DNA of 64,000 nt. Source: Desulfoplanes formicivorans (lineage in GTDB: Bacteria > Desulfobacterota > Desulfovibrionia > Desulfovibrionales > Desulfomicrobiaceae). The stretch lies in contig NZ_BDFE01000015.1 of the NCBI RefSeq assembly GCF_001748225.1, forward strand, positions 425,437 to 489,436. The letters run 5' to 3'. Position numbers and translations under genes: made by a program. Shown one piece after another: positions 1-18,734 of this stretch. Position 1 is the stretch's first letter. Every line of letters starts with the position of its first letter. The notes beneath the pieces are model-generated. The model had not been told where the DNA came from. It ran no database searches and saw only the letters and a program-made list of their open reading frames with translations.

Positions 1-3000
1 TTGGGCCACATGGGGGCGGGGATGGTTTTCCAGTACAAAGAAATGCGTCAGCAGGTCCTGATGCAACCCCGAGGCAGAGAGAATGTCTGCCAGGGCGCAG
101 TATGCGTGCCTGCGTGCCTCAATGGCCGTATCCTGCAACTGGTGTGCAAGATCAAGAAAGCTCAGGGCAGGATCGCAATGCAGGCGTACGGGCACGGTGT
201 TGGAACACAGCCCGATGAGATTTTCCACCCCGTCCAGCTCCGGGGAGCGGCACGAAACCACTTCGCCAAAAACAACATCTTTGCGCCTAAGGGAGATGCT
301 CAGCAACAGGGCCCATGCCGCCTGCAGCAGTACGTTGAGGGTGACATTGGAGCGTGCGCATAGTGCGTGCAGGCGGGACTGGAGATCATGGTCCAGTTCC
401 AAGGCTTGACGCCGGTTCTGCACATCACCTGTGGATGCATGGTATCCGGGCAGTTGGGACGGCTGGGCTCCCTGAAGATGCGTTTTCCACCAATGCAGCG
501 ATGTCTTTTGGTCCTGGGCGTTCAACCAGTCTATGAATGCATTGAACTGCAGGGGATGTTCCACCGGGGGTGTTTGGGGGAACAATTCGTTGAAGAGGAT
601 GCCTACGCTCCAGCCATCAAGGATGATGTGGTGCACCGTGAACAACAACAGGTGCTCCTGGTCGCTGATGCGCGCCAGGGTGAAACGGATCAGGGGCGGA
701 TGTTCCAGATCGAACCCACGGGCGCGTTCTTTGCGCATGAGGCTGGCCATGTGTTGCTGCCGGTCTTTTGTGGACAGGGAACTCATGTCTTCTCTGGTCA
801 GGATGGTGTCCATGTCCACTGTGCCAAGGACCACCTGCCAGGGCCTGGATACGCCATGATGGACAAAGGCTGTACGGAATATGTCGTGTCTGGATAGCAG
901 GCTCTTTATTCTCTGGTGCAACTGGTCCGGTCGGAGTTCTCCGCGGAGGAGCAGAAGATTCTGTTCCATGTACGCATGGGAGTGCGGATGCAACCGGGCG
1001 TGAAAGAGCATGGCCTGCTGCAGGGGGGCCAGATTGTACACTCGCTGCATGCGCTCACCAAACAGTGATTCCAGATACGTCAGATCGCTTGCGGGAACCT
1101 TGGGGTCTGGTTGTTCCGTACCGGCCCCCGCCTGCGTGTTGACCGCGGTCATCCGGGGGGCCAGGGAGGCGATGGTTGTGCCGCGCAGGAGATCACTGGC
1201 GTCCAGAGAGTAGCCTTTGGCCCGGATGCGTGATGTGATCATGAGGGCCTTGATGGAGTCACCTCCCAGATCAATGAAACTGTCCTCACGGCCGACTTGG
1301 GGTACATGGAGTTGTTCCGACCAGATTTCGGCGAGGAGGCGTTCTTCCCTTGTCCGGGGAGGAGTAAAGGGGCGATCTGCATTTTTGGGGATGGCCGGGA
1401 GGGATTGTTTATCCACCTTGCCGCTGGCGTTGACCGGCATCTTCTCCAGGGCCATGAGACGATCCGGAACCATGTAGGCGGGCAGACGTTGGGCCAGCAT
1501 TGTCTGCAGGTCGTTCATGGACAGGGTCGCATCATTTGTCACCACATAGCCATGGAGGTGATGTACTCCATGTTCTTCACAGGCAATGACTGCGGCCTGA
1601 CGCACGCCGGGACAATCGAGAAGAGCCTTTTCGATTTCAAGGGGTTCAATGCGGTGCCCGCGGATTTTGAGTTGACTGTCGGCCCTGCGCAAGAATTGGA
1701 TATTGCCGTCGGGGAGCCAGCGGCAGATGTCACCGGTACGGTACATGCGTGCGTAGGGCGAATCCTGAGGGGCCAGGGGGTTGGGCAGGAATGCAGAGGC
1801 AGTCAGGTCCGGACGATTCAGGTATCCCCGGGCCACCTGCACCCCGGCCAGGTGGAGCTCTCCGGGTACTCCCACAGGACGCGGGTTGCCGTCGATGTCA
1901 AGAATCAAGGCCCGGGTATTGTCCACAAGTTGACCAATGGGTACGGGCCACGTGCCGTCCAGGTCAAAACTGGTTGTCGTGACAGTGCATTCTGTGGGCC
2001 CGTACGAATTACAATGTCGGTAATTCCCTTGAGGCCGGGCCATGTGGAGGGTTTCACCCCCCGAGAGCATGAGGCGCAGATCCGGCAGGCTCGCGCCATC
2101 GATCATTTCGGCAACCTGAGACAGAAAGTAGGCTACTGTAATGCGCTCACGACGCAGGTAGTCTTCCATGCGGGGAAGATCGTGGCGCGTTTGATCGTCA
2201 AGAATGTGAACTGTGGCACCCTGCATGAGCATGGGCAAAAATTCCCAGATGGAGGCATCAAAGATGAACGGGGCAAACGCCGTGGTTCGGTCGTTATGCG
2301 TGATGGCGTAATGACGCGTAAACCACTGGCAGAGATTGGTCAGACTGCCATGTTCAACCATGACGCCCTTGGGCTGTCCGGTGCTGCCCGACGTATAGAT
2401 GACATAGGCCAGATCCTTTGGGCCTGGTGCTGGCGGCTCTGGCAGGGAGTCCTGGGGGGGCAGATGGCGTAATGTGGCCGCATCAATCCACGGGCCGGAA
2501 AAGTATTCTTCTGTGGGACGGAGATCAGCCGTGCTGATCAGGGCGCAGGGGTTTGTATCGTCAAGCTGGAATCTGATGCGTTGGGTGGGTGCGTCCGGGG
2601 CCAGTGGCACAAAAGCGGCCCCGGCCTTCATGACGCCCATCATGGCGATCACAAATTCCAGGCAGCGATCCAGACGGATGGCCACCATCTGCTCTGGTCC
2701 GGCACCAAGGGAGACCAGGTGTTTTGCCAGCATGGTGCTGGAGCGATCCAGCTCGGCGTAACTGATATGATGGTCCCGGAAGACCAGTGCGGTCCTGTCT
2801 GCGTAGCGTTGGGCGGCTTCGTTGCAAAGGTGCACAATGGTATGGCTCAGGTCAAAGGGCACATCCTTTCCCTGCCAGTCATGCAATACCTTTTGGGCCT
2901 GGACCGGAGGCAATGCTGAAACCGAACGTAACGTAACCGATGGATCTGTGGCCAGTCGGGCAACCTCCTTGACCAGATGGGCAAAGCATTGCCCGAAACA

Positions 3001-6000
3001 GCGGGCTGTTTCAGGGCGCAGGGCCTCGGAGGAAAGCAGGTTGCAGTGCAGAACACCGTCCATTTCCACTATATCAAGGGCAAAATCGTACATGGCACCG
3101 CGGCCCGGCGGCACAAGAGGCGTGAAGGAAAGACCGGGCCAGGTGGGACGTCGCTGGTCGGCCTTTTCGTAACTGAGCATGGTTGCTGCCGGGGACCGAT
3201 CCAATCCTTTGACTATTTCGCTGTAGGGCGCTCGGTTTCTGGCCATGGACTCGGCACAGGCCAGGCGGATCTGCTGCATAAAGTGAGGAAGCGTCCACTC
3301 GGGTTGTATCCTGAAGTCCTGAGGTACGGTGTTGACAAACATGCCCACAACCCGGTCCATGATCTCGTCGTGACGTCCGCCATCGGCCATGCCTACACAA
3401 AAGCGGGTCCCATCGGTGATTTTGTGCAGGAAGAGGGTGTATATAGCGTTGAGGAACATATTCATGGTCACGCTGTAGGTACGGCAGGCACGGTACGCCT
3501 GGGCGGTCAGTTCAGCATCCAGGGTTATCCATTCCTGCCGCCCCACAGGAGAACCGCTGCGAGACGGGAAGTCCAACGGGATGTTCCGCGGGGATAGATC
3601 CTGCAGACGCTGCACCCAGAACTGTGTGTCCTCTGCTGCACGATCCTGGTCTGCAACATGAGGAATATCCCGCAGAGACACGGGTTTTTCAATGGGGGCA
3701 TGGCCGTTCATGAGTGCGTTCAGGTCATCGAGCAGGATGCCCAGTGAGGTCCCGTCGGCAACGATATGCAGCAGATCAAGCATGAATACATGTGATCCGT
3801 CGGCAAGGGTTGCCAGTCCTGCGCGCATAAGGGGAGCACGTTCCAGGTCGAAGGGACGGATAAAATCGCTTAGGATCTCTTCAACCGTACGTTCACCTGC
3901 ATGTATGCGTTCCAGGGCAAAGGCTGGTTCGTCCACGACCTTGCGTACCAGGTGTTCATCAATATGGTGGAAACTTGATCGCAGGGCCTCGTGGCGGAGG
4001 ATACATTGTCCCAGGCTGATTTCCAGCTGCTCCACGTCCAGGGGCTGTTGGGTTTCCTGGATTTTCCAGGCCAAGGGCAGGTGGTAGGCATCCTGGCCGT
4101 GTTCGCGCTGGAAGATGGCATACAGACGCTCTTCTGTGGGGGACATGGGAGTGAAGATGTCAGGGGTGCCGTGGTCCAGTTTGAAGGTGAATCCGCCATG
4201 GCGTAAGGCCTGAACACTTTCCCGTACTGCTGTTTCAATCTGACGGATGTCTTCGTCGGTGTGCTCGGTGCTCAGACCGCAGGTGCGTCGTTCCCATGTG
4301 TAAATGCCGCGTTCCATGAGCAGCAGGTAGAAAAGGGTCAGTTCTATGGGGTTGGCAAGGGCGCTGTACGGACCAAAGCCTTCGAAAATGAACTGGGGGC
4401 CAAAGTTTCTCATGCGCAGGGGCACCTGGTTGTTCTGGAACCAGAGGTTGAGGCGATCAGCCAGGAGATTGGTCTGATCAGAAACCCGTTTTTGAAGAGA
4501 CGGCCCCTGTTCCAAAAGATAGCCGGTGGCGGCGCAGACTCCTTCCATGCTCAGAGGGTGGCGGCAGAAGGTTCCTCCGAAAACAATGGTTTTGTTCTTG
4601 GCCGGGTGGTTGTCTTTTCCTAAAAATCCGCCGTCGATATAGTCGATATATTCTTTACTGCCGGCAACAACACCCACGTGGAGGCCTCCGCCCACCACCT
4701 TGCCGTACAAAGCCAGATCCGCGCGTATATCGAAATGCTCCTGGGCTCCGCCAGGAGCGCAACGGAATCCGTTGACGACTTCGTCAAAGATGAGACAGAT
4801 ACCTTTTTCCCGGGTGAAGCGCCGCAACCGGCGCAGAAAGGTCTGTGGCTGCAGGTTGGGTTTGCGGCTCTGCACCGGTTCAACAAGTACTGCGGCAACG
4901 TCCTGCCAGCGTTCTTCCAGCAGGGTAAAGGCCGTATCGCTGTTGTAGTCCAGAACGAGCACGTCCTGGACCATGGCCAGAGGTGTTCCTGGTGAGTAGG
5001 TGCCGGTGCCGCCGTTTTCCGAAGCTGCAAGTATGCCGTCAAAGGTGCCGTGATAGGAGCCGTTGAACAGGGCGATGAGGGGACGTTCCGTCTTGGCCCG
5101 GGCAAGGCGAATGGCGAACATAACCGCTTCGGTGCCGGTGTTGCAGAATGAGACCCGTTCCATGCCGGTCAATCGGCTGATACGTTCTGCAGCCTTGGAC
5201 GTCAGATCACATTGCGGTCCGAGGCCGAAACCGCGTCCCAGGCGGTTGCGCAAGGCCTCCACCACATACGGGGGATTGTGTCCGAGAAAATGCACTCCCA
5301 TGCCCACGGCTATGTCGATGTACTCGTTGCCGTCCACATCGCGAAAACGCCCGCCCCATGTGCTGTCGGCAACAATGGGATAGGCAATGTCATGCAGCTC
5401 AGGACGGAAGGACAGGGAGGATTTCCAGTCGGCCAGGACTGCGGAGTGTCGCCCCAGGGATCTGGACTTTTGCGTCCGCTGGGCATGCCTTTGTACCAGG
5501 CCAGAGACAAAGGCTGCCTGTTGTTCCGAAAGGGGGGCAGGTTCAAACACGAAACCGCGGATGTTGCGTTTCAGCCGGACCTGTTTCTGGGGGGCCGGAG
5601 ATGAAGGGGAAGCGGGTTCTGCCGTTGGAGGAGAGGATGGTGATGAGGAAGGATGGAGTGCGTTTAACTGCTGGGCAAAAAGCTCCTGCATGCTCTGGAG
5701 CTGAGCTGCAAATAACGGGTGCAGATTTGTGCTGGCAGGAGAAGAGATGGCCTTGGGAGGGGGATCCATTGCCGGAAGGGGAGCTTGTTTGGCGGAGGTA
5801 TCCGGCGGCGCTTTTTCTGCTTTGGCCATGGGCACGGCATCATTGGAGCGCAATTCCATGACATGGTTGGCCAAATCGGTCAGGGAAGGCATGGTTGTCA
5901 GGAACCAGCGTGCTTCAAGGGCAACGCCGAAACGCCTTTCTATTTCCTGGGCCAGTTTGATGATCATCAGGGAATCGAGACCCAGTTCGAGAATATTGGT

Positions 6001-6078
6001 TTCAGTATCCAGTTCTTCAGGTTTGAGGCCCAGGGTGGTGTGGGCCAGGGAAATAATCGTTTGAATCGGGTCTTCCAT
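1..6078 (-). CDS. Nonribosomal peptide synthetase, ACP-aminotransferase-C-A-PCP-C, 3' end outside window
   Basis: About 2026 residues are visible and the frame is still open at base 1. Domains in order: a carrier domain with LGLDSL (phosphopantetheine Ser36); a Pro/Ser-rich linker at about 85-160; a class III PLP aminotransferase at about 190-600 with FDEVV and the Schiff-base lysine in YGKVVGGG (Lys460); a condensation domain with LHIVADG (His771, first His of HHxxxDG replaced by Leu); an adenylation domain with YTSGSTGQPKG, FDASIWEF (1273-1280) and NASGKVD (Lys1554); a PCP with LGGDS (Ser1608); and a second condensation domain with HHIILDG (1816-1822). In mycosubtilin/iturin synthases such an aminotransferase aminates a beta-ketoacyl-ACP before condensation, so a beta-amino-acyl starter is inferred. 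The start ATG at 6078 has an AAGG 11-14 bases upstream. No PKS gene lies upstream, so the ACP must be loaded from elsewhere. Product unknown. Confidence 0.93.
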   Translation of the reverse strand, partial: MEDPIQTIISLAHTTLGLKPEELDTETNILELGLDSLMIIKLAQEIERRFGVALEARWFLTTMPSLTDLANHVMELRSNDAVPMAKAEKAPPDTSAKQAPLPAMDPPPKAISSPASTNLHPLFAAQLQSMQELFAQQLNALHPSSSPSSPPTAEPASPSSPAPQKQVRLKRNIRGFVFEPAPLSEQQAAFVSGLVQRHAQRTQKSRSLGRHSAVLADWKSSLSFRPELHDIAYPIVADSTWGGRFRDVDGNEYIDIAVGMGVHFLGHNPPYVVEALRNRLGRGFGLGPQCDLTSKAAERISRLTGMERVSFCNTGTEAVMFAIRLARAKTERPLIALFNGSYHGTFDGILAASENGGTGTYSPGTPLAMVQDVLVLDYNSDTAFTLLEERWQDVAAVLVEPVQSRKPNLQPQTFLRRLRRFTREKGICLIFDEVVNGFRCAPGGAQEHFDIRADLALYGKVVGGGLHVGVVAGSKEYIDYIDGGFLGKDNHPAKNKTIVFGGTFCRHPLSMEGVCAATGYLLEQGPSLQKRVSDQTNLLADRLNLWFQNNQVPLRMRNFGPQFIFEGFGPYSALANPIELTLFYLLLMERGIYTWERRTCGLSTEHTDEDIRQIETAVRESVQALRHGGFTFKLDHGTPDIFTPMSPTEERLYAIFQREHGQDAYHLPLAWKIQETQQPLDVEQLEISLGQCILRHEALRSSFHHIDEHLVRKVVDEPAFALERIHAGERTVEEILSDFIRPFDLERAPLMRAGLATLADGSHVFMLDLLHIVADGTSLGILLDDLNALMNGHAPIEKPVSLRDIPHVADQDRAAEDTQFWVQRLQDLSPRNIPLDFPSRSGSPVGRQEWITLDAELTAQAYRACRTYSVTMNMFLNAIYTLFLHKITDGTRFCVGMADGGRHDEIMDRVVGMFVNTVPQDFRIQPEWTLPHFMQQIRLACAESMARNRAPYSEIVKGLDRSPAATMLSYEKADQRRPTWPGLSFTPLVPPGRGAMYDFALDIVEMDGVLHCNLLSSEALRPETARCFGQCFAHLVKEVARLATDPSVTLRSVSALPPVQAQKVLHDWQGKDVPFDLSHTIVHLCNEAAQRYADRTALVFRDHHISYAELDRSSTMLAKHLVSLGAGPEQMVAIRLDRCLEFVIAMMGVMKAGAAFVPLAPDAPTQRIRFQLDDTNPCALISTADLRPTEEYFSGPWIDAATLRHLPPQDSLPEPPAPGPKDLAYVIYTSGSTGQPKGVMVEHGSLTNLCQWFTRHYAITHNDRTTAFAPFIFDASIWEFLPMLMQGATVHILDDQTRHDLPRMEDYLRRERITVAYFLSQVAEMIDGASLPDLRLMLSGGETLHMARPQGNYRHCNSYGPTECTVTTTSFDLDGTWPVPIGQLVDNTRALILDIDGNPRPVGVPGELHLAGVQVARGYLNRPDLTASAFLPNPLAPQDSPYARMYRTGDICRWLPDGNIQFLRRADSQLKIRGHRIEPLEIEKALLDCPGVRQAAVIACEEHGVHHLHGYVVTNDATLSMNDLQTMLAQRLPAYMVPDRLMALEKMPVNASGKVDKQSLPAIPKNADRPFTPPRTREERLLAEIWSEQLHVPQVGREDSFIDLGGDSIKALMITSRIRAKGYSLDASDLLRGTTIASLAPRMTAVNTQAGAGTEQPDPKVPASDLTYLESLFGERMQRVYNLAPLQQAMLFHARLHPHSHAYMEQNLLLLRGELRPDQLHQRIKSLLSRHDIFRTAFVHHGVSRPWQVVLGTVDMDTILTREDMSSLSTKDRQQHMASLMRKERARGFDLEHPPLIRFTLARISDQEHLLLFTVHHIILDGWSVGILFNELFPQTPPVEHPLQFNAFIDWLNAQDQKTSLHWWKTHLQGAQPSQLPGYHASTGDVQNRRQALELDHDLQSRLHALCARSNVTLNVLLQAAWALLLSISLRRKDVVFGEVVSCRSPELDGVENLIGLCSNTVPVRLHCDPALSFLDLAHQLQDTAIEARRHAYCALADILSASGLHQDLLTHFFVLENHPRPHVAQ

Positions 6079-6162: not shown

Positions 6163-9100
6163 TCAGAATGCAAAGTCAAACGACAGCGCAAGGACATTAT
6201 TGTCATACATGGAGGCTCCATTGTAACGGGAGTATTTTACCTTGAAGTGCAAGCCGGAGTTTATTTCCAGATCCAGGTCTGCGTTGAGGCGTAACAGGTC
6301 CTGATCGGTTTTGGCCCCTGTGGTGCTGAAGGAGTAGGCTGGATCGCTGCGAAAAGCAGCGTTTATGTCGGGTCTGTTCAGCCATTGATGCCACCAGGCC
6401 ATGCCCAGCCTGGGAGTGAGTGTGGCAGTACCAAGGTGAAACGTTCGGCTCAGCTGGAGTCCGGCTGTTGAAGCCAGATACTTGCTTTGCTGGCTGTCCA
6501 CGCTCAACGCACTGATGCCGCCGTCCTCTTTGTAGGAATCGCTGTCCAGAATCATGAATACGCCTTCAACCAGGGGTTCGAGTTCGAGATTCCCCACATG
6601 GAAACTGTGCGCAAGCGATGTGGAGACCATGGCATCGCGCATGTTGAAGTCCGCATCATTGCTTTCGTTCAGCCAAGGCACGTTGCGGGTGGAGGACACG
6701 TCATGGGTAGCCACGGATATGGCCGTACTCCATGTTGTTGTCCCGGAGGACCAACGCATGAAGGGACCCATGCGCAGGATGGTGTCGTCCATGTCGCCGG
6801 TGGAAGAAAAATCCTGTGTCTCCGTGCCGTAGTCCAGGAAGAGACCAAACTGCAGATGGGGACTGAAGTTTCTCCCTCCGCCCAGGGCCATGCCGTTCCC
6901 GTAGATGTCATAGCCGTCAGCTGCTTCGCCGTTGCCATTCTGGTGGCCGAAATGACCGTGGAGTCTGCCAAAAGCGAACCAGCCCCGCTCCTCCCGGGTG
7001 GGGATGTGGTACTGGTGTTGGAGGGCGCGGTGCACGTCAGGAGTCTGACGCACCAGGGCCAGGGCCAGACCGTTGGTGGTATGCGGCTGCAGTTGGGCTG
7101 CAGCCCCAGCCGGGGTATCTGATCTGTCCAAAGCTGCAATCAGGGATGTGCCGGTGGGAGACAGAGTATTCTGCACCGCTGCTGCCGCCATGGTGTCCAG
7201 GGTCGATCCCAGGTCATTATTGCTTATATTGTCGGCATAATAGGTCCAATCACGGCTGCTGTACAACCGCACATCCGTGCCGTCATGGGACAGACTGAAG
7301 GTGATGGGATTCATGTCGTTGAGGATGACTGCGGACCCCGCATATGTGGTCACGCCGGAAGCAAGGGTGTAGTTGGCATCCCCCAACACACCGGACAGGC
7401 CCGGGTCGATCCATATTGTTGAGGAGAACTCCAAGGTATCGGCATTGGCAATGCCTGCGCCTTCGTCCAGATCCAGGATGAGATAACCGTCAGAGACCGT
7501 TAGACTGTTGTTTCCCCCTCCCAGGTCAATATTGCCGTCGAGCAACCCTCCATTGGACAGGAGAACCGTATCGTCGCCGCTGCCACCCTTGATTGAATAG
7601 AGTGTGCCTGCAACAGCGCCGCCATTAATGTTGAGCGTGTTGGAAGAACCGTCGCGCATCTCTACGCCATAACCCGTGCTGCTGACCAGTCCGTATATGT
7701 TGGCTGTGGAATTCTGCATGCTGACGCCGACGGCAAGGACACCGGGCATGTCCGAGGCATCGGAAATGTACTCGCCTTGTGTGATGGTTTCCCCGTCCCA
7801 GGCATACACGGCAGTGGCCTGCGTTGTTCCGTAGAGATCAAGGACGGCGTTATTTTCCAGAACAGCGCCATAGACCGCATGGGTATCTTCGCTGACGGTG
7901 TGAAAGGTTGCATTCATTGAACGGGAAGTGGTTACAGCGGCAAGCTTGCCTGTATCGGTAACCGTGACCGTGCTGTTGTCCACGCGAAGTGCTGCAGACG
8001 GTCCCAAAACCGCAGCAGTCCCACCAATGGTGACCGTGTCTGCTCCGGATTCCACGGAAATGGCACTGCCGTTTCCCCCCTGCATATACGCCAGGGAGTC
8101 TTCTGCCGTGTTCAGGCTAGCCTGGTTTTGAACCACAATGGCTGAAGCCGCGTCGCCGTACGCGCCTACCTCGCCATACAGATCAAGGCTTGCTCCGGAT
8201 TGGATGGAGAAGACAGATGTTTCCGGGCCATAGGCTTCAGCGCGGGCATTGTCGGCCACGGTGCCGTTGACACCACTGGTCAGGACCACTGCGGCCGTGC
8301 CAGTGCTGTTGGTGTAATAGGTGAGGGTGGGGTCAATGGTCGTGACGATGGGATTGCCGATTACATCTATGAGAGTCAGATCCAGATAGGAGGTGGTCCG
8401 TCCGCTGGCTTCCACCAGAAACGAGGTGCTGTTGGTCGCATTGGTGATAATGGAGTCAAAGGATGTATACCCGCCGTAGGTACCTGCAGATACACCGGAC
8501 AGGTTAGCGTTGAGACTTCCGTCAGATCGGTACAAACGTTCCATGCCTCGGATGAGATCCATGAGCAGGATTTCGCACGGCGTGATGGTATAGACGCCGT
8601 TTTTATCAATGGTAGTCAGGCTGGGCACGTTGACCACCAATCCCAAGTTCAGTTGCTGATACCAGGCGGAAAAAGAACTGTATCCCGCGATGCTGCCCCC
8701 GTGACCGATCAGGGACAGGGGGACGCCGCTGCCGGTGAAGTCCAGTGTGAAAACATTATAGCCGTACCATAAGGGGATGCCGCCCATGCTGATGAGCGTG
8801 CTATTGGCCAGATCGGTGCGGGCCGCGAACAGTTCCTCCGGGAGGAATGATGTGCCGTTGGAAAGGGTGTTGGTCTGCAGTATCTGTATCCATTTGAGCT
8901 GGTCTTCAACTGTGGAAACCACGGCCCCTGAGGCCCAGGGGATGGTTGGGTCCATTTCCGTGATCTCTTTCCCGGCTTCCGAACCGATGATATCTGTGGC
9001 GTTTGAGTCCATGGCCAGGTAGGTAGCGTTCATTTCGGCAGGGGTAAAGACCAGTTCGTTAAGGATATCGGCAATGGTTGCGTTGGTGTTGGTTTTGGCT

Positions 9101-9762
9101 GCATAGGCAGCCTCGCCGATAAGGGAGAGAATCACTGCATTGGTGTTGGAATAGGTGCCTTCCCAGGGAGAGCTGGCTACCTCCGGATAGTTGGACAAAC
9201 CCAGTGCGGCCAGTTCGGTGTGAGTGACTTCAGGGGACAGAGATCCATAATCGGCTGCGATCCATTCGTCCCAAAGGGTGGAGGTGGATCCGGAACGTGT
9301 GCTACCCATGTAGTTGGGGACCTGCGAACTCATGTTTAGCAATTGTTCCACGGTGATGGATTCTGCCCCGTCGGGCAGTTCCGAGACGCCCAGATCCACG
9401 TCATATTTCTTTTGCAGATCGCCCAGGGTGTCGGTCAGGCTGAAGTACCCTTTATCAACCATGAGCAGGATGGCGCTGCCAACGAACATCTTGGATTGAC
9501 TGCCGATACGGAATGTTCCGTCCTGGTCAACCCCCATGCCGGAGATAGTGGGAGGATCGTTGTTTCCCAGGTTCAGCCCCACATTGCTGCTGATGCCTGT
9601 GGACGTAAAATGATTGTTCTGGATGAGTAAGAGCAGATCTTCAGCTTGCGCAGTGGCCGCGTAGGTGGAATCACCATGACAGACGCAAGGAATGACGAGC
9701 AAAAACAACATGCCAAGGTTGATTATGAGGTTTTTGTACATGTTGATATCTCTGCTTGTCAT
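6163..9762 (-). CDS. Autotransporter with serine beta-lactamase-family (class C/EstB-like) passenger
   Basis: About 1199 residues. An N-terminal signal peptide (hydrophobic core about 11-26) is followed by a serine hydrolase domain (about 40-420) carrying all three motifs of the class C beta-lactamase / D-Ala-D-Ala peptidase fold: S88-x-x-K91 (SQSK), Y204-S-N206 and H354-G-G. A Thr/Ser/Asn-rich beta-helical stalk (about 430-900) leads to a C-terminal autotransporter barrel (about 930-1199) that ends in Phe. The protein would be exported by Sec and displayed or released at the cell surface. Substrate is unknown: peptide, ester or beta-lactam are all possible. Start: the first in-frame ATG (9819) lies inside the terminator of the preceding gene, so the start is 9762 (AAGGAG only 2 bases away) or 9741 (weak SD, better signal peptide). 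Fusion of this hydrolase class to a type V barrel is unusual. Confidence 0.9.
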   Translation of the reverse strand: MTSRDINMYKNLIINLGMLFLLVIPCVCHGDSTYAATAQAEDLLLLIQNNHFTSTGISSNVGLNLGNNDPPTISGMGVDQDGTFRIGSQSKMFVGSAILLMVDKGYFSLTDTLGDLQKKYDVDLGVSELPDGAESITVEQLLNMSSQVPNYMGSTRSGSTSTLWDEWIAADYGSLSPEVTHTELAALGLSNYPEVASSPWEGTYSNTNAVILSLIGEAAYAAKTNTNATIADILNELVFTPAEMNATYLAMDSNATDIIGSEAGKEITEMDPTIPWASGAVVSTVEDQLKWIQILQTNTLSNGTSFLPEELFAARTDLANSTLISMGGIPLWYGYNVFTLDFTGSGVPLSLIGHGGSIAGYSSFSAWYQQLNLGLVVNVPSLTTIDKNGVYTITPCEILLMDLIRGMERLYRSDGSLNANLSGVSAGTYGGYTSFDSIITNATNSTSFLVEASGRTTSYLDLTLIDVIGNPIVTTIDPTLTYYTNSTGTAAVVLTSGVNGTVADNARAEAYGPETSVFSIQSGASLDLYGEVGAYGDAASAIVVQNQASLNTAEDSLAYMQGGNGSAISVESGADTVTIGGTAAVLGPSAALRVDNSTVTVTDTGKLAAVTTSRSMNATFHTVSEDTHAVYGAVLENNAVLDLYGTTQATAVYAWDGETITQGEYISDASDMPGVLAVGVSMQNSTANIYGLVSSTGYGVEMRDGSSNTLNINGGAVAGTLYSIKGGSGDDTVLLSNGGLLDGNIDLGGGNNSLTVSDGYLILDLDEGAGIANADTLEFSSTIWIDPGLSGVLGDANYTLASGVTTYAGSAVILNDMNPITFSLSHDGTDVRLYSSRDWTYYADNISNNDLGSTLDTMAAAAVQNTLSPTGTSLIAALDRSDTPAGAAAQLQPHTTNGLALALVRQTPDVHRALQHQYHIPTREERGWFAFGRLHGHFGHQNGNGEAADGYDIYGNGMALGGGRNFSPHLQFGLFLDYGTETQDFSSTGDMDDTILRMGPFMRWSSGTTTWSTAISVATHDVSSTRNVPWLNESNDADFNMRDAMVSTSLAHSFHVGNLELEPLVEGVFMILDSDSYKEDGGISALSVDSQQSKYLASTAGLQLSRTFHLGTATLTPRLGMAWWHQWLNRPDINAAFRSDPAYSFSTTGAKTDQDLLRLNADLDLEINSGLHFKVKYSRYNGASMYDNNVLALSFDFAF

Positions 9763-9776
9763 ATCTCCTTGCATGA

Positions 9777-9816
9777 CAAAAAAAGGCCACGAGGAGAGGT
9801 GATTATCCTGTGGCCT
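9777..9816 (-). terminator. Rho-independent terminator after the DUF697 gene
   Basis: Read on the minus strand, AGGCCAC pairs with GTGGCCT around a 19-base loop and is followed by seven to eight T. It begins 16 bases after the DUF697 stop codon and excludes the farthest upstream start of the next gene. Confidence 0.75.
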
Positions 9817-9831
9817 CATACGACGAGCTAT

Positions 9832-10416
9832 TTAGGAAGCTGGAGTTTCGACGGTTGTTTCCGTGGGCGCCTTGCCTTTTCCGATCCATCCGCTGACGGT
9901 CTTTTTACTGGTTTCGTAACCAGCTTTGATGGAGTCGCTGATCTTGTTCATGCTGGCTTTGTCCAGCCCTTGGCCCGTGGCAAAATGATCGGCAAAGCTT
10001 TTGCCCACCGCATAGGTTGCTGCCGCATTGGCCAGGGGAAGGGTCGCCAGCCCCAGACCGGGGCCTATAATGGGGATGTAGCGCGCCAGATCGGAAAGTT
10101 TTGGGGTGAGCAGACTGGGCAGGATGCCGCCGACCAGGGCAATGGTGATCTGTTTGCCCCACTGGGCCTGGAAGGGAATGTCATAGGCCTTGGCGAGTTT
10201 GTAGATCATTTCCAATTGCAAGGCTGCCAGTGCGGCCATGTCGAAAGCAGGGACAGGAACAAGGGCGATGGCCAGAGAGCTGTGCACCCTGTTTCTGATG
10301 ATGGCATTGACTGTCTCTGGGGCAGGCAAAGTGCGTGCGGATTGTTCATTGTGTACTGTTTTTTCGGTATGAGGAGCTGCTTCTGGTTTTTGGTCCGGTG
10401 TTTGATCTTTTTTCAT
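9832..10416 (-). CDS. DUF697-type membrane protein
   Basis: 194 residues. A charged, Pro/Glu-rich N-terminus (1-38) precedes a segment typical of DUF697, with RNRVHSSLAIALVPVP and a hydrophobic stretch at about 44-66. Two further hydrophobic segments follow (about 88-102 and 113-135, the latter with GPGLGLATLPLANAAA). DUF697 domains occur in inner-membrane proteins of the YcjF type and in proteins linked to small GTPases. Here the domain stands alone, without a GTPase. A strong AAGGAG lies 7 bases before the ATG. It is followed by its own terminator, so it is probably a single-gene transcript. Function unknown. Confidence 0.75.
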   Translation of the reverse strand: MKKDQTPDQKPEAAPHTEKTVHNEQSARTLPAPETVNAIIRNRVHSSLAIALVPVPAFDMAALAALQLEMIYKLAKAYDIPFQAQWGKQITIALVGGILPSLLTPKLSDLARYIPIIGPGLGLATLPLANAAATYAVGKSFADHFATGQGLDKASMNKISDSIKAGYETSKKTVSGWIGKGKAPTETTVETPAS

Positions 10417-11061: not shown

Positions 11062-13476
11062 TCAGAATCCCCATTTGAAATTGATCCACGCCCCGTTGGC
11101 CGTGAAGTCGTCGTTGTACTGGGTGGTGCATCCCAGTTCCATGCTGACATTGTCCTTGGCAAAGGTGAGGGAGGCGTCGGCGATGTAGGATGAATCCGAG
11201 ACGTTGTCGCTGACCTTGACGCTTCCGGTATTGGGCAGGGACTGGCTGACCTCGATGTCGTTGTCCGTGAGGGCCTGTTCCCAGCGAAGGCCTAGGGACG
11301 GGGTTACGCGCGCACCGCCCATTTCCCAGGTGCCCATGAGGTTGACCCCCAGGATGGACCTGAAAACGTGATCATCGTAGGAGCCGTAGTGGGTGTTCCA
11401 GTCGGAGTTGTCGGCATCAGAGGTGTGGCTGTCACATTGTGCCCAGGAGTGGCCAAGCCCTAGTTCGGGCATCACAGCCAGATTGCCGAAGGTGAAGAGA
11501 TAGCCGGCCATGATCTGGGTTTCAGCGCCGTAACTGGTATAGTCGTCTTCTTCGGGTATTTCCAGGTTGGCTCCGGTGAGTCCGTCGTATTCATGGCGGA
11601 CCGTGTACAGGGTCGAGGTGACATCTACATGCCAGGCTTCGTAATTGTATGAACCGTGGGCTCCCAGAGAATAAATATTCTGGTCGTCGGAATTGTCACT
11701 GTACCCGGTTCCCTTGAAGTCGACATTGCTTTGGGCGATGCCGCCGTGAACTCCCAGGGTGAAATCCGGATTGAAATTCCAGTCATAGCCCAGAACCAGA
11801 CCAGTGGTGGTGCCGTCATATCCCATACCGCCGTCCGAAGGATGATTCACCGTTGTCAGGTAGGGGCGGAGGAACAGTGTATTATTGCTTTTTTGGTCAG
11901 GTCGCACAGAAGTAAAGCCTGCATCGGTTGCAATGGTGCCGGAATCGGCCAGCAAGGTTGCTTCTTCTTCGGAGTTCAGGTTGGACGCCAGCACTTGGGA
12001 AATGATGCGGTTCTGGATCATGGTGATTCCCTGTCCAACCGCCTGGTGTGCTGCCCTAAGGCTCAGGGCAGCAGTACTTTCCTTTGGTTCATATCCAAAG
12101 GATACTGTGGCATTTTTTCCTTTATCCTTGCCGGACCAGGAAACCGTGATATCGGGGTTGGTGAACCCTTTTTCCAACTTGCCGAACTGTGAAATGATAT
12201 CGCCAATACCCTTTTCCTCTTGGGCTCCTGAAGACACCCAGTCAGATGGTATGACCAAATCCTCTTCCTTCTCTTCAATGATGCGATACGGGGTGTCAAA
12301 TACTATGCTCTCGCCAGGGGTAATGGCAACGCGTAATGCCGCATTATTGAGATCAAGAGTGGAACCTTGGGAAACATATATGGGGCTTTTGTAGTCTGCG
12401 CCTTCAGGATTCCCGTAAAGAGGCACGGAAAAAGCGTTTGAAAATTTTACTGAAGATTCATTAAGAACATAAAGAGCCCTGCCGCCGTTTGTGGTATATA
12501 TTTTACCGGGGCTTGAGATGATGGCATTTGTGGCATTATAGAGAGCAATGGCTGCAATTCCATTTCCATAGGGGGCATCAACAAAAATGGTTCCGGTGTT
12601 GTTGATTATGGTGTCTTGGCTGCGACTATCCAAGATGCCGATCACCCCTCTGGTGGTAGAGCCTTTGCCTGCTTTGACCTGAATCGAGATATTGCCGTCA
12701 TTTGTGATTGTTCGGTTATCGCCATCATAAGTAACGATTCCTGTTATACCAAGGAGATCGACGGAAGCATTTTCTCCAACACTATCGCCTGCAGTTGCAG
12801 TAACATAAATGTTTCCAGAGTTATGAATCTGATCAATTTTTCCTGAAACGCCGCCAATATACTCTATAGTGGCGTTTGTATCATCTCCTGTTGCGCTTCC
12901 TATTTCAACATTGGTGATAATGTTGTTGGAGTTGGTGAATGACTCGATATGTCCTGAATAAGCATTCACACCATAAATGTACTTTGCATGTGTCTTTGCA
13001 CCATCCCCAGAAGCGTCCCCAATGTTTGCGGTAGCTGAGATGGTTCCTGAGTTTATGAAAGATGCGACTTCTTCATCAAAATATACCCCATAAATGTCAT
13101 TTATATCTGCTTCAGAGTTGTCCCCTGCTGCGTCCCCAACGTTTGCGGTAGCAGAGATGGTTCCTGAGTTGGAGAAGGATTCGACATCGTTTTCAATAGA
13201 TACACCATAAATATTATCCGTTATTCCCGTTGCCTTGACGGTTGCACCCTGGATATCCAATTTATCCAATTTTTCGAGAGAATCTTTACTATATATTCCA
13301 ATTGTGGTGGGCGTAGTGTTAGTGTTAGTGTTTGTCACCTGTATATCTTTGTAAACCGTGTATGTGGAATTCCCGCTGATATCGAGCCCTATAATGGAGT
13401 CCCCCAGTGAGACCCCGGGCCAGCCCAATGCTCCAGAAATTATGAAAACCATCAGCCAACGTCTCCACTCTCCCAT
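11062..13476 (-). CDS. Autotransporter adhesin-like protein with 40-residue passenger repeats
   Basis: 804 residues with a signal peptide (MGEWRRWLMVFIISGALG, cleavage near residue 25). The passenger contains about four tandem repeats of 38-40 residues with the core SFxNSGTISATANxGDA and a following IYGV; the two central copies are closest in DNA as well. From about residue 500 the sequence is a type Va autotransporter barrel that ends WINFKWGF with the expected terminal Phe. No catalytic motif is visible, so adhesion or surface coating is inferred. AAGGAGG lies 5 bases before the ATG. Lower GC in the passenger than in the barrel fits rapid passenger evolution. The gene is followed by the hairpin at 10979-11020. 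Confidence 0.85.
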   Translation of the reverse strand: MGEWRRWLMVFIISGALGWPGVSLGDSIIGLDISGNSTYTVYKDIQVTNTNTNTTPTTIGIYSKDSLEKLDKLDIQGATVKATGITDNIYGVSIENDVESFSNSGTISATANVGDAAGDNSEADINDIYGVYFDEEVASFINSGTISATANIGDASGDGAKTHAKYIYGVNAYSGHIESFTNSNNIITNVEIGSATGDDTNATIEYIGGVSGKIDQIHNSGNIYVTATAGDSVGENASVDLLGITGIVTYDGDNRTITNDGNISIQVKAGKGSTTRGVIGILDSRSQDTIINNTGTIFVDAPYGNGIAAIALYNATNAIISSPGKIYTTNGGRALYVLNESSVKFSNAFSVPLYGNPEGADYKSPIYVSQGSTLDLNNAALRVAITPGESIVFDTPYRIIEEKEEDLVIPSDWVSSGAQEEKGIGDIISQFGKLEKGFTNPDITVSWSGKDKGKNATVSFGYEPKESTAALSLRAAHQAVGQGITMIQNRIISQVLASNLNSEEEATLLADSGTIATDAGFTSVRPDQKSNNTLFLRPYLTTVNHPSDGGMGYDGTTTGLVLGYDWNFNPDFTLGVHGGIAQSNVDFKGTGYSDNSDDQNIYSLGAHGSYNYEAWHVDVTSTLYTVRHEYDGLTGANLEIPEEDDYTSYGAETQIMAGYLFTFGNLAVMPELGLGHSWAQCDSHTSDADNSDWNTHYGSYDDHVFRSILGVNLMGTWEMGGARVTPSLGLRWEQALTDNDIEVSQSLPNTGSVKVSDNVSDSSYIADASLTFAKDNVSMELGCTTQYNDDFTANGAWINFKWGF
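12830..13200 (-). repeat. Tandem repeat coding for the 40-residue passenger units
   Basis: The coding repeat has a period near 117-120 bases. Copies share GTTTGCGGTAGC-GAGATGGTTCC and a following GAGTT (plus-strand reading), clearest near 13023 and 13140. Four units can be traced at protein level; the outer two are diverged. Such arrays change length by slippage or recombination. Confidence 0.65.
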
Positions 13477-13560
13477 CTTTTCCTCCTTTTTATCCTACCG
13501 TTTTGACATACATAAAGGCCAACTGTTCATGGAAAATTGCAGGCAACCTGCACGGTCTTA

Positions 13561-14039
13561 GTCCTGATGTGTACTTTCACACTGATTAAGGTCCATTAAT
13601 AAGTATAAATAATTTGAGCCGATATAAAGAATTGTTAATTTTTGCAAGAAAAATTTGGTTTTTTCCCAAAGGTTTTCCATAAAGATGTCAAAATTGATTT
13701 ATCCACTTGATATTTTAGAAGAACGTAACTTGATGCTCAGCTCCTGCCACAATCCTTGATGTTATGGTCAATTTGGTCATGGCATGTATTGTGATTGAAA
13801 ATGAATTTTGAATCGTTATATAGTATTATGATGTATTTATGTCTAACAATTATATTGTATGTATGAACAAGAATATGAAAGAAACAGATATTTTTTGATT
13901 TATTTTGTAGTGGGTGCATGTGTTCACTGTCCGGTATGAGTACAACGTATTTAGACAAGATACATTGCATAAAAAACCGGTCTCTTCTCCGTTGGATATG
14001 ACGGTGAAAAGACCGGGTTGTCGTGGCCATGTAAAGAGG
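13561..14039. other. AT-rich intergenic stretch
   Basis: No supported gene. It holds AT-rich DNA upstream of the autotransporter at 13476 (likely its promoter, no clear boxes picked) and the terminator hairpin at 13975-14019. A 97-codon open frame across 13737-14030 runs through that hairpin and has unusual composition, so I do not call it. Confidence 0.6.
13968..14019 (-). terminator. Terminator attached to the autotransporter relic
   Basis: Read on the minus strand, AACCCGGTCTTTTCACCGT pairs imperfectly with a matching arm ending in ACCGG, then GGTTTTTTATG. Stem, loop and distance to the preceding stop resemble the hairpin after the intact autotransporter at 11062, so stem and gene end appear to have been duplicated together. 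Confidence 0.65.
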
Positions 14040-15431: not shown

Positions 15432-15832
15432 GGTTGTATTCTCCTTGAACCTTCAGCTCTGTGCTGTTGTGGGTTTGTAAATGAAAAAAAAGTGTGATTG
15501 GAGTAAGTTTTACGCAAAATAAAAATAGTTTTTTATGGGTATGATGTTTTTATGCTCAAGTTGTTTGTCATGGAGCAATATGGTGTTGAAGTTAATTGAT
15601 GTGGTCATTGACAGTAGAGTACATGCTTTTGTTTTCTGGCATCAAATGACCTGATTTTTGTGTTGGTTTTGCATGTTGTCATCACATTTTATTCATGTTT
15701 GATAGAAAAACATGATGGATCGCTTTTTAAGATATTTAGATATGCAATTTGACATATTTCTGGTTAGTCATTGTATTATAATATTTTATAGATTTGATGT
15801 CGTGTAGTTGTTTAACCAAATGGGAGAAATTT
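15432..15832. other. AT-rich divergent intergenic region
   Basis: About 400 bases between the divergent M48 peptidase and ABC transporter genes, clearly richer in A+T than its surroundings. A candidate promoter for the transporter lies at 15749-15779. No gene or RNA recognised. Confidence 0.6.
15749..15779 (+). promoter_or_regulatory. Candidate sigma-70 promoter for the ABC importer
   Basis: TTGACA at 15749-15754 and TATTAT at 15774-15779 are separated by 19 bases, slightly long. The start codon follows 54 bases later. Assigned by eye only. Confidence 0.4.
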
Positions 15833-16942
15833 ATGCGTGAAGGAAGCCTCAAAAGTTTGAGTTTCATTGTTTGCTTTGTTTTCGGCCTTGTTGTGTCGAT
15901 GCATTCAGCGGCCGTAGCCAGTAAAAAAACTCCGATTTATAATATGGGGTATATTTTTACCACCCATCATACCCCCTTGGTGGTGGCTATGGCCAAGGGA
16001 GAGGCTTTTAAGAATTTTGGGGTTTATCTCAAACCTGTTGTGGAAAAGATGAAATATGCACTGATGGACGGAGATACACAATTGGCTACATTGAATATCA
16101 TTGTAGCCAAGAGTGGTTCTGAAACAACGACCCTCTTTGCTATGAACCGGATGGATATGGCTTTGGCTTCCGGTACGGCCATTATGTCAGGAATCGACAA
16201 GGGGAGCAATATCAAGATGGTATGCCCTCTTCATGTAGATGGTATGGGTTTGGTGTTTCCCCAGGGGAGCTCCGTGAATGGCTGGGATGATGTCCTTGCG
16301 TATATCAAAGCATCCAAGCGGCCCGTCAAGATCGGCTATCATTCACCAACAAGTGCTCCGCGTATTGTTATAGAAGGTGCCCTGAACAAGGTTGGTCTTA
16401 AGGTAACTCAGGATGCCACGGATTTTGATGCAGACGTCCTTTTGGTGGATCTCAAATCCACATCCAATCTGATCCCTGCGCTAGTGGGTCATCAGGTGGA
16501 TGCCTGGGTCGGTCCAGCTCCCCATCCCGAGGTCGCCGAGCTCAAGAACGTCGGTCATATCGCCCTTGACCTGCGGGATCTTCCCCCGGCCGGAGAATGG
16601 CACAATTTTCCCTGTTGCGTCATGGCCGCACGTCAGAGTGTTATCGATGATCACCCTGAAGTTGTTGAAAAAATGCTAGAATTGATGACCAAGTGTGGTG
16701 AGTGGAGCAATACCCATACAGCCGAACAGAGCGAAATTGTTTCCAAGTGGATTGGTGTTCCCGCCAAGGCCATTGAAAATTCGACTATCATCTATACCAC
16801 AGAACCGTCAGATAACTGGATGCATGGTGAAGCCGTATATCTGGATATTTTGAACAGCATGGACAAGTTCAAGGGACGGCTCAAGGGGAAGACCCTGGAT
16901 GAGGTCAAACCGCTTCTTTATGATTTCAGGTTTCTCCATTAG
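15833..16942 (+). CDS. ABC transporter substrate-binding protein, NitT/TauT/SsuA type
   Basis: 369 residues. A signal peptide with hydrophobic core FIVCFVFGLVVSM ends near AAVASKK. The mature part is a periplasmic binding protein of the NMT1/SsuA-like class, recognisable from its overall pattern (an N-terminal GYIFTTHHTPLVVAMAKGE and a later PALVGHQVDAWVGPAPHPEV). It should deliver a small organic anion or cation to the permease and ATPase downstream. The substrate cannot be read from the sequence; sulfonates, nitrate-like anions, riboflavin or thiamine precursors are family possibilities. GGGAG lies 6 bases before the ATG at 15833, which is preferred over the ATG at 15794. A hairpin separates it from the permease. 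Confidence 0.85.
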   Translation: MREGSLKSLSFIVCFVFGLVVSMHSAAVASKKTPIYNMGYIFTTHHTPLVVAMAKGEAFKNFGVYLKPVVEKMKYALMDGDTQLATLNIIVAKSGSETTTLFAMNRMDMALASGTAIMSGIDKGSNIKMVCPLHVDGMGLVFPQGSSVNGWDDVLAYIKASKRPVKIGYHSPTSAPRIVIEGALNKVGLKVTQDATDFDADVLLVDLKSTSNLIPALVGHQVDAWVGPAPHPEVAELKNVGHIALDLRDLPPAGEWHNFPCCVMAARQSVIDDHPEVVEKMLELMTKCGEWSNTHTAEQSEIVSKWIGVPAKAIENSTIIYTTEPSDNWMHGEAVYLDILNSMDKFKGRLKGKTLDEVKPLLYDFRFLH

Positions 16943-16954
16943 CAGGCACTCTCT

Positions 16955-16983
16955 GAACCCCGGTCTGACAGAGACCGGGGTTC
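16955..16983 (+). terminator. Hairpin between binding protein and permease genes
   Basis: GAACCCCGGTCT pairs perfectly with AGACCGGGGTTC around the 5-base loop GACAG. There is no T tract. In ABC operons such hairpins often protect the upstream mRNA or partly terminate, giving more binding protein than permease. It ends 4 bases before the ATG at 16988, arguing for the later start. Confidence 0.7.
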
Positions 16984-17008
16984 AAACATGAAGAACAGTG
17001 GGACTGTT

Positions 17009-17845
17009 ATGCATAAACTCGTTTCCAGATTTTCTCTTTCCCTGACAACGCCGTTACTTTTTCTCCTCTTATGGTCCTGGATTGCCGGCCGGGTGGATAA
17101 TCAGGTTATCATGCCTTCGGTGGACGCAGTGCTTGATCTGCTGATTCAGCCTCATCAGGACCTGATTTCCATGGGATCGTTGGTGAGCAACGTCCTGGTG
17201 TCGTTGCTCAGGGTTTTGATCGGGTATATCCTGGCCGCGGTTATAGCCATACCCTTGGGTATTGCCATGGGATACTCCTCTGTAGCCCATACCCTCTTCA
17301 GTGATTTTTTGAACATGTTTCGTCCCATTCCCCCATTGGCGTGGGTTCCCCTGGTCATGGCCTGGTTTGGGGTAGCCAGCTTGGCCGATATGTTTGGTGT
17401 GGAAGATGGCCAATGGTTCATCTATTTGTCCAATTTTAAATATTCCATGGTGTTCATTATTTTTATAGGCGCTTTTTTCCCCATCCTGACCAGTGCCATT
17501 CATGGTGTAAAAAATGTGAACAGAGTTTTTATCGACTCTGCCAGGATGCTTGGTGCCGGAGAGCGAACCATCTTTTTCAAGGTGCTTTTGCCCGCAGCCA
17601 TGCCCGCCATTGTCAACGGTATGCGTATCGGTCTGGGAATTGCCTGGATGTGTCTGGTTTCCGCGGAAATGCTTCCCGGGTCTCTTGCAGGAATCGGTTA
17701 TCTCATCACTCATGCCTATACTGTAGCCTCAACGGATATCGTCATTGCCGGGATGGTGGCCATAGGTTTGGTGGGAGCCATCATGGATGCCTTGTTTCGC
17801 TATTTTGAAGTGAAAAAATTCAAGTGGCAGCGTTTGAATAGATAA
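17009..17845 (+). CDS. ABC transporter permease, NitT/TauT (SsuC) type
   Basis: 278 residues with about six membrane segments, beginning with LTTPLLFLLLWSWIAG. The cytoplasmic EAA-type loop that docks to the ATPase is visible as DSARMLGAGERTIFFKVLLP followed by PAIVNGMRIGLG. It forms the membrane channel of the importer encoded by 15833-18734. Two starts are possible: ATG 16988 has its purine-rich site locked in the preceding hairpin, whereas ATG 17009 has GGGA 6-9 bases upstream, so 17009 is chosen. Gene order (binding protein, permease, ATPase) is standard. Confidence 0.88.
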   Translation: MHKLVSRFSLSLTTPLLFLLLWSWIAGRVDNQVIMPSVDAVLDLLIQPHQDLISMGSLVSNVLVSLLRVLIGYILAAVIAIPLGIAMGYSSVAHTLFSDFLNMFRPIPPLAWVPLVMAWFGVASLADMFGVEDGQWFIYLSNFKYSMVFIIFIGAFFPILTSAIHGVKNVNRVFIDSARMLGAGERTIFFKVLLPAAMPAIVNGMRIGLGIAWMCLVSAEMLPGSLAGIGYLITHAYTVASTDIVIAGMVAIGLVGAIMDALFRYFEVKKFKWQRLNR

Positions 17846-17966
17846 CTAGAGACGTATTGGCATTTGTTCGTAGATGTATGTGCTTCATGGTAACAATGTC
17901 ATGGAATACAAGGTATTTAAAAAATCTTATGGGAGCCCTTACTGGCGTCCGGATCAAGGATTTGAG

Positions 17967-18734
17967 ATGAGGGATGCAGTGATAGAAGTTGCTGGATTGC
18001 GTAAAGAGTTTATTACCGAACGCGGTGAGTCCGTTCGTGCGTTGGATCGTGTGGACTTCAAGGTCTTTCACAATGATTTTTTATGTATTGTGGGGCCTTC
18101 GGGATGCGGTAAATCAACGCTTTTGCGGATTTTGGCAGGACTTGAACAGGCCTCTTTTGGCAGTGCAACGTTTCAGGGACAAGTGCTGACCAGACCTCAC
18201 CGTGATGTGGGCATGGTCTTTCAGGAATATTCCCTGTTCCCATGGCGTACCGTCATGGACAATGTCACTTTGGGGTTGGAATTTCGCGGCATATCTGAGG
18301 GAGAGCGCCGCAGTATCGGGCAGGAATATCTGCGTCTTATCGGCATGGAGGGATTTGCCGATGCTTTTCCTTATGAGCTTTCCGGAGGTATGCGCCAGCG
18401 TGTGGCCATTGCTCGAGCCCTGGCCACCGAGCCGGATGTTTTGCTCATGGATGAACCTTTCGGGGCTCTGGATGCGCATACCAGAATTTTGCTCCAAAAG
18501 GAATTGTTGCGGATTTGGGAGCATAAACGGACGACCATCCTTTTTGTCACCCACAGCGTGGACGAAGCCATTTATCTGGCTGATCGTATCATGGTCATGT
18601 CCGCTCGTCCGGGACGCTTCAAAAAGGAGATCCAGGTGGAGATGGCAAGGCCACGGGATCGTGCCATGCCCGAATACGGGCGCATGGCTGCAAGCATTTT
18701 GGACATGCTGGAACAGGAAGTCGTTAGGGGGTGA
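17967..18734 (+). CDS. ABC transporter ATPase, NitT/TauT (SsuB) type
   Basis: 255 residues. Complete nucleotide-binding domain: Walker A GPSGCGKST, Q-loop VFQEYSLFPWRT, signature LSGGMRQR, Walker B VLLMDEPFGALD and the switch histidine in THSVDEA. It powers the importer of the two genes upstream. The start at 17967 (MRDAVIEV) is chosen because AAGGA lies 7 bases upstream and because the longer forms add a sequence unlike the family. A 120-base gap without a terminator separates it from the permease. A strong bidirectional terminator follows. Confidence 0.9.
   Translation: MRDAVIEVAGLRKEFITERGESVRALDRVDFKVFHNDFLCIVGPSGCGKSTLLRILAGLEQASFGSATFQGQVLTRPHRDVGMVFQEYSLFPWRTVMDNVTLGLEFRGISEGERRSIGQEYLRLIGMEGFADAFPYELSGGMRQRVAIARALATEPDVLLMDEPFGALDAHTRILLQKELLRIWEHKRTTILFVTHSVDEAIYLADRIMVMSARPGRFKKEIQVEMARPRDRAMPEYGRMAASILDMLEQEVVRG

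What the first reader, a model, noticed from the sequence alone, without database searches (positions are those of the whole stretch)
1..6078. NRPS that starts with ACP-aminotransferase, with no PKS gene upstream
Visible domain order is ACP, PLP aminotransferase, C, A, PCP, C. In mycosubtilin-type synthases this aminotransferase follows a PKS module in the same protein and turns a beta-ketoacyl-ACP into a beta-aminoacyl-ACP. Here the protein begins at the ACP, and the next gene upstream on the strand is an autotransporter, so the beta-keto acyl chain must be supplied in trans. A beta-amino-acyl lipopeptide from a likely sulfate-reducer relative would be unusual.
Basis: partly seen in the sequence, partly recalled or inferred. 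Interest (0 to 1): 0.62.

Follow-up and report, generated by a model that had tools for sequence, protein, structure and literature searches.

The report
Split PKS-NRPS making a beta-amino peptide
The gene at the edge of the window is half of an ordinary kind of antibiotic-style assembly line (a polyketide-peptide hybrid) in a sulfate-reducing bacterium; its supposedly missing polyketide genes exist just outside the window, and it travels with an unusual surface-displayed peptidase gene.

Summary
The domain reading is right: ACP - MycA-type aminotransferase (AMT) - C - A - PCP - C. The inference "no PKS" is a window-edge artefact. In the parent genome the NRPS is complete (5430 aa: ACP-AMT-[C-A-PCP]x4-TE-E). 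Convergent to it, 1.5 kb past its stop codon, lie PKS1 (AT-ACP-KS-AT-DH-KR-ACP), PKS2 (KS-AT, no ACP), a type II thioesterase and a PPTase, with a tripartite efflux operon behind. PKS2 ends just after its post-AT linker (YPFER) and the NRPS begins at the ACP, so the canonical KS-AT-ACP-AMT module is split between two polypeptides; a Xenorhabdus locus has the same break. The AMT belongs with iturin/microcystin-type domains, not GSAM. The same gene order occurs in one other genome, of another genus in the family, and in no other of 348 genomes of the order. Expected product: a beta-amino-gamma,delta-unsaturated acyl tetrapeptide; no fatty-acyl ligase, so "lipopeptide" is unsupported. The upstream autotransporter carries an S12 (D-peptidase-like) hydrolase found only in the same two genomes of 150 searched: probably self-protection or product trimming. 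New member of a known kind; the surface S12 link and the TE-E ending are the unusual parts.

The parts
1..6078 (-). 5' 2026 codons of a 5430-aa NRPS (full gene G000:C15:415222-431514, -): ACP-AMT-C-A-PCP-C-A-PCP-C-A-PCP-C-A-PCP-TE-E
5860..6060 (-). ACP, res. 7-73, Ser36 in GLDS; the only carrier protein in the cluster not assigned to another module
   Evidence: PF00550
4159..5556 (-). MycA-type class III aminotransferase domain (res. 175-640; PLP Lys K460 in YGKVVGGG, codon 4699-4701), preceded by the helix LFAAQLQSMQELFAQQLNAL typical of ACP-AMT linkers
2887..4152 (-). condensation domain C1 (joins the beta-aminoacyl chain to residue 1; LHIVADG, second His kept)
1417..2820 (-). adenylation domain A1 with its C-terminal subdomain
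1147..1338 (-). PCP1
1..1050 (-). condensation domain C2 (cut by the window edge; DCL/dual-like clade)
6163..9819 (-). S12 serine hydrolase fused to an autotransporter; 84 bases upstream of the NRPS start; conserved in the second cluster
8629..9540 (-). S12/beta-lactamase (PF00144) passenger: SQSK (S107), YSN (Y223), HGG (H373)
6229..6972 (-). autotransporter beta-barrel (PF03797)
9832..10416 (-). DUF697 protein, same position upstream of the S12 autotransporter in the second cluster (69% identity); role unknown

Best explanation
The window gene is the NRPS half of a complete modular PKS-NRPS hybrid. Steps: (1) PKS1 loads a monocarboxylic starter on AT0-ACP0 and its KS-AT-DH-KR-ACP module extends it to an (E)-2-enoyl-ACP. 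(2) PKS2 (KS-AT, no ACP) adds malonyl and leaves the beta-ketoacyl chain on the ACP at the N-terminus of the NRPS, i.e. one canonical KS-AT-ACP-AMT module split between two proteins. (3) The AMT turns the beta-keto into a beta-amino group (probably from Gln, as in MycA), giving a 3-amino-4-enoyl thioester, the same logic as in Adda of microcystin. (4) Four C-A-PCP modules add four amino acids. (5) A TE with a Cys nucleophile releases the product; a terminal E domain behind the TE, with DCL/dual-like C2-C4, points to D-residues. (6) A tripartite RND pump exports it; the co-operonic surface S12 hydrolase most likely cuts it, as self-protection or final trimming. Shown: gene content, domain order, motif integrity, conservation, AMT affiliation. 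Inferred: protein pairing, chemistry, product, role of S12.
For: PKS genes and domains. PKS2 has no PP-binding hit and ends after MPVYPFEREH plus a short helix, while single-chain AMT proteins run AT - YPFxRxxxW - ACP - QLxxMxxQLxxL - AMT; the break falls between the linker and the ACP in both genomes. Xenorhabdus bovienii has the same break: KS-AT // ACP-AMT-C-A-PCP. AMT: MycA 6kfm 1.3e-112, inside the PKS/NRPS AMT clade at 96/100 and apart from the host's own GSAM-like enzymes. Synteny in G006 from efflux to DUF697: NRPS 66%, PKS2 69%, PKS1 58-67%, TE 60%, PPTase 48%, RND 84%, S12-autotransporter 59%, DUF697 69%. PKS1-PKS2 and PKS2-TE genes overlap (TGATG, ATGA). Catalytic motifs kept in KS, DH (HVIFGKAISP), KR, AMT Lys, TE and E.
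Against: No direct evidence that PKS2 and the NRPS dock; no known docking-domain pair was identified. C1 did not group with the C domains that follow AMT in iturin-like proteins (FastTree, few references). AT0 specificity and the four A-domain codes are unassigned (codes read by eye matched no well-known residue). PKS1 could be iterative. The G006 copy is on four contigs (C97, C107, C225, C85), with the C4-A4-TE piece not found, so its synteny is by pieces.
Confidence: 0.85

Rival explanations
1. The NRPS is an independent lipopeptide synthetase: its ACP is charged in trans by fatty-acid synthase or a stand-alone ligase, and the convergent PKS genes belong to another pathway.
For: The PKS genes are on the opposite strand and not in the same operon.
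Against: PKS2 lacks the ACP that the NRPS has spare, and the break falls exactly at the linker. Both halves occur together with the same layout in the second genome that has the NRPS. The cluster has one PPTase, overlapping the NRPS 3' end, and one type II TE. A KS search of the whole genome found only two KS domains besides a single one in a 503-aa frame.
Confidence: 0.06
2. The AMT does something other than beta-amination, e.g. it is a GSAM-like or amine-loading domain that has lost function.
For: Best NCBIfam hits for the domain are GSAM models, all below cut-off.
Against: MycA AMT is by far the best structural relative, the tree separates it from GSAM at 96/100, and Lys460 and the surrounding motifs are intact and 77% identical between two genera.
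Confidence: 0.05
3. The S12 autotransporter is a chance neighbour (a peptidoglycan or ester hydrolase) and not part of the pathway.
For: There is another autotransporter close by (11062-13476) and S12 enzymes have many roles; a weak NCBIfam match is to the D,D-carboxypeptidase AmpH.
Against: It sits 84 bases before the NRPS in our genome and 86 in G006, is 59% identical overall and 73% in the passenger, and among 150 relatives it occurs only in the two genomes that have the NRPS. Its best solved relative is an alkaline D-peptidase.
Confidence: 0.3

Closest known systems
MycA / BamA (mycosubtilin, bacillomycin D; iturin family)
   Same: Class III AMT of the same clade after an ACP and before C-A-PCP at the PKS-NRPS border
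   Different: MycA/BamA is one chain starting with an acyl ligase and using a trans AT (BamD/FenF); here there is a cis-AT PKS split from the ACP-AMT, AT-ACP loading, a DH-KR module, four NRPS modules, no acyl ligase
McyE-type AMT module of microcystin (Adda); from general knowledge, with a Planktothrix AT-ACP-AMT-C-A protein as the fetched relative (L027)
   Same: A DH-KR module upstream gives a 4-ene, then KS-AT-ACP-AMT gives the beta-amino group
   Different: Only one extending module before it, split polypeptides, different peptide length and TE-E ending
Xenorhabdus ACP-AMT-C-A-PCP protein (D3VEV4 in PMC3870968; X. bovienii L069)
   Same: Same break: PKS ends KS-AT, the next protein begins ACP-AMT
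   Different: Its PKS starts with an AMP-ligase-ACP, genes are co-directional, and the AMT is only 40% identical
ClbP/ZmaM S12 prodrug peptidases and BogQ-like D-stereospecific resistance peptidases
   Same: S12 hydrolase encoded in an NRPS cluster; SxxK and YxN motifs
   Different: Here the hydrolase is an autotransporter passenger; Asn (not Ser/Thr) in YxN, no transmembrane helices like ClbP's

Membership tests
PKS-NRPS module with MycA/McyE-type aminotransferase | Class III AMT of the PKS/NRPS clade, not GSAM | tested here: met
PKS-NRPS module with MycA/McyE-type aminotransferase | Order KS-AT-ACP-AMT-C-A-PCP | tested here: met
   Met across two polypeptides, PKS2 // NRPS; physical pairing not tested
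PKS-NRPS module with MycA/McyE-type aminotransferase | AMT converts beta-ketoacyl-ACP to beta-aminoacyl-ACP | not testable with these tools
   needs an enzyme assay
Iturin-type beta-amino fatty acid lipopeptide synthases | Chain start by a fatty-acyl ligase-ACP | tested here: not met
   PKS1 begins AT-ACP; no AMP-binding domain in PKS1 or PKS2
ClbP/ZmaM prodrug-activating S12 peptidases | SxxK and YxN motifs | tested here: met
   SQSK107, YSN223
ClbP/ZmaM prodrug-activating S12 peptidases | Ser/Thr instead of Asn at the third residue of YxN (position 188 in ClbP, PMC9889268) | tested here: not met
   YSN in both genomes
ClbP/ZmaM prodrug-activating S12 peptidases | C-terminal transmembrane domain | tested here: not met
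   autotransporter barrel instead
D-stereospecific resistance peptidases (BogQ-like S12) | S12 hydrolase in the NRPS cluster that cuts the D-residue-containing product | tested here: inconclusive
   S12 relative of alkaline D-peptidase in the cluster; activity untested
Strained-ring Cys thioesterases (ObiF, SulM) | Cys nucleophile | tested here: met
   GLCMAG at res. 4829
Strained-ring Cys thioesterases (ObiF, SulM) | Gln-Cys-Asn motif for beta-lactam formation (SulM) | tested here: not met
   Leu-Cys-Met here; nearest solved TE is that of A. baumannii AB3403, 4zxh, which also has a Cys but the usual Asp position (PMC11298585)

The most novel reading that the evidence does not exclude
A Gram-negative producer displays a D-peptidase-like S12 hydrolase on its surface through an autotransporter, encoded just ahead of its own NRPS, so that the exported D-residue-containing beta-amino peptide is activated or neutralised outside the outer membrane: a new place for the known S12 prodrug/resistance strategy, in a sulfate reducer.
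Probability: 0.35. Interest if true: 0.6.

Novelty: new member of a known kind. Interest (0 to 1): 0.38.

Why it matters
It corrects an apparent orphan: the assembly line is complete and its chemistry can be read. It adds a beta-amino-acid PKS-NRPS pathway in dissimilatory sulfate reducers (I found no paper describing one). It also supplies a natural split of the KS-AT-ACP-AMT module useful for docking studies, and a testable link between an autotransporter-borne S12 hydrolase and a nonribosomal product.

Tried and rejected
Viral contigs: no relative of ACP-AMT. Host placed only indirectly: dsrA above cut-off, nearest solved DsrA 2xsj (to my knowledge Desulfomicrobium norvegicum) ahead of 2v4j and 3or1. 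FkbH family in own genome: no hit, but no control rang either, so absence is not shown. Acyl ligase or FAS supply: considered and dropped once PKS1/PKS2 were found. ClbP membership of the S12 enzyme: rejected on YxN and the membrane domain. Adenylation codes were read by eye and matched no well-known specificity; not used. Literature for TE followed by E, or for autotransporters in NRPS clusters: nothing found in the searches made. The one-file genome download was not available.

Full report
What was checked. The window lies at G000:C15:425437-489436 of a 3.0 Mb genome in 26 contigs, 100% complete. The minus-strand ORF at 1-6078 has no stop at the window's left edge; Pfam confirms ACP, aminotransferase class III, condensation, adenylation, PCP and condensation in that order. 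Reading on, the ORF ends at contig position 415222 and encodes 5430 aa. Pieces searched separately give ACP-AMT-(C-A-PCP)x4-TE-E (the last C-like domain is called E from its LTPIQRWLF, HHLVVDG and FNYLG motifs, and from its place with E domains in the tree).

The missing PKS. A search of the whole genome for ketosynthases gave three places; two are in this cluster, at C15:405506 and 410872. They belong to PKS1, C15:404087-410779 (+), 2230 aa, AT-ACP-KS-AT-DH-KR-ACP, and PKS2, 410776-413688 (+), 970 aa, KS-AT. A type II thioesterase (413685-414437, +) and an Sfp-like PPTase (414524-415246, -, overlapping the NRPS 3' end) complete the core; a tripartite RND-type efflux set lies at 398199-404006 (+) (the names of the efflux proteins come from sequence inspection). 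PKS1, PKS2 and TE overlap by a few bases, so they are very probably one operon, convergent with NRPS-PPTase.

The split module. PKS2 has no carrier protein after its AT. Its C-terminus is the usual post-AT linker (MPVYPFEREH) followed by a short tail with a helix-like stretch (QLALLQQETFRQVCQMQQEFL). In AMT proteins that are one chain (Planktothrix, Nostoc, Aliiroseovarius, Variovorax, Spirosoma, Burkholderia, Paenibacillus) the order is post-AT linker - ACP - AMT, in most of them with a QLxxMxxQLxxL-like stretch between ACP and AMT. The NRPS here starts at that ACP and keeps the stretch (LFAAQLQSMQELFAQQLNAL). So the break is between linker and ACP, and the N-terminal ACP is the only unassigned carrier in the cluster. 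The same break is present in Xenorhabdus bovienii (A-CP-KS-AT // CP-AMT-C-A-CP), and CP-PLP1-first proteins from Xenorhabdus nematophila and Streptomyces were tabulated in 2013 (PMC3870968). Hence the layout is rare but known.

The aminotransferase. MycA's AMT (6kfm, 6kfr, 6kfu) is the best solved relative at 1.3e-112, GSAM follows at 4.7e-48. In a maximum-likelihood tree the domain lies within the PKS/NRPS AMT group (96/100) together with BamA, while the host's own GSAM-like enzymes lie outside. MycA's amine donor is Gln (PMC3870968).

Conservation. One other genome, G006, in another genus of the same family, carries the same set: efflux and PKS1 5' part (C97, L057), PKS1 3' part-PKS2-TE // PPTase-NRPS end (C107, L056), NRPS middle (C225, L058), DUF697 - S12 autotransporter - NRPS start (C85, L024); identities 48-84%. 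No other genome among 348 of the order and none at this level in a sample of 395 of the phylum (one remote homologue, G440, 39%). G006 has four extra genes between efflux and PKS1: 3-hydroxyacyl-CoA dehydrogenase, a discrete ACP, acyl-CoA dehydrogenase and an FkbH-like HAD protein, the set that makes hydroxy- or methoxymalonyl-ACP in known pathways (general knowledge); so the two products probably differ in one extender unit.

Predicted chemistry (inference). AT0 lacks the Arg that ATs for dicarboxylic extenders keep (LAHSQLL against LHRGRCM and LTRGELA), consistent with a monocarboxylic starter. KR has the LDD motif and DH the HxxxGxxxxP motif, so module 1 should give an (E)-enoyl chain; PKS2 adds two carbons without reduction; AMT then gives a 3-amino-4-enoyl unit. 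With an acetyl starter this is 3-aminohex-4-enoyl. Four amino acids follow. C2-C4 group with a bacillomycin C domain that follows an E domain (small reference set), and no module has an E of its own, so either they are dual C/E domains or the E behind the TE acts on them. The TE nucleophile is Cys (GLCMAG), as in AB3403, ObiF and SulM; the SulM Gln-Cys-Asn motif is absent.

The autotransporter. It is an S12 hydrolase (SQSK, YSN, HGG) fused to an autotransporter barrel. The nearest solved relative is an alkaline D-peptidase. In 150 relatives the passenger was found only in the two genomes with the NRPS. S12 enzymes in NRPS clusters are known as prodrug peptidases (ClbP, ZmaM; PMC9889268) and as D-stereospecific resistance peptidases (BogQ, cited in PMC9541196). 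ClbP-type membership fails two tests (Asn in YxN; no membrane domain). The most probable role is cutting the exported product at the cell surface, for self-protection or trimming; this is inference.

Verdict.

Noticed in passing
window 11062-13476 (-): A second, unrelated autotransporter (804 aa) just upstream of the cluster; the stretch 12001-14000 has low GC (0.42 against about 0.55).
   Followed up: no
L018:3226-5298 (-) (NRPS C-terminus, G000:C15): TE with Cys nucleophile (GLCMAG) followed by an intact-looking E domain (HHLVVDG, FNYLG); the E domain is also at the NRPS end in G006. E after TE is not the usual order.
   Followed up: partly
L057:4133-7429 (+), genome G006: Four genes resembling the hydroxy-/methoxymalonyl-ACP pathway inserted between efflux and PKS1 in the second cluster, absent from that place in ours.
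   Followed up: partly
G000:C15:389927-390511 (+): A paralogue of the DUF697 protein lies left of the efflux genes, so DUF697 genes stand on both sides of the cluster.
   Followed up: no
L025:1-10455 (-), genome G440: A 3485-aa protein from a distant family of the phylum also begins with an ACP-like domain and an AMT (37-39% to ours), but its ACP reads GLDP in place of GLDS and its first C domain is divergent.
   Followed up: partly
window 15794-18734 (+): NMT1-like binding protein, permease and ABC ATPase: a complete small-molecule uptake system beside the cluster.
   Followed up: no
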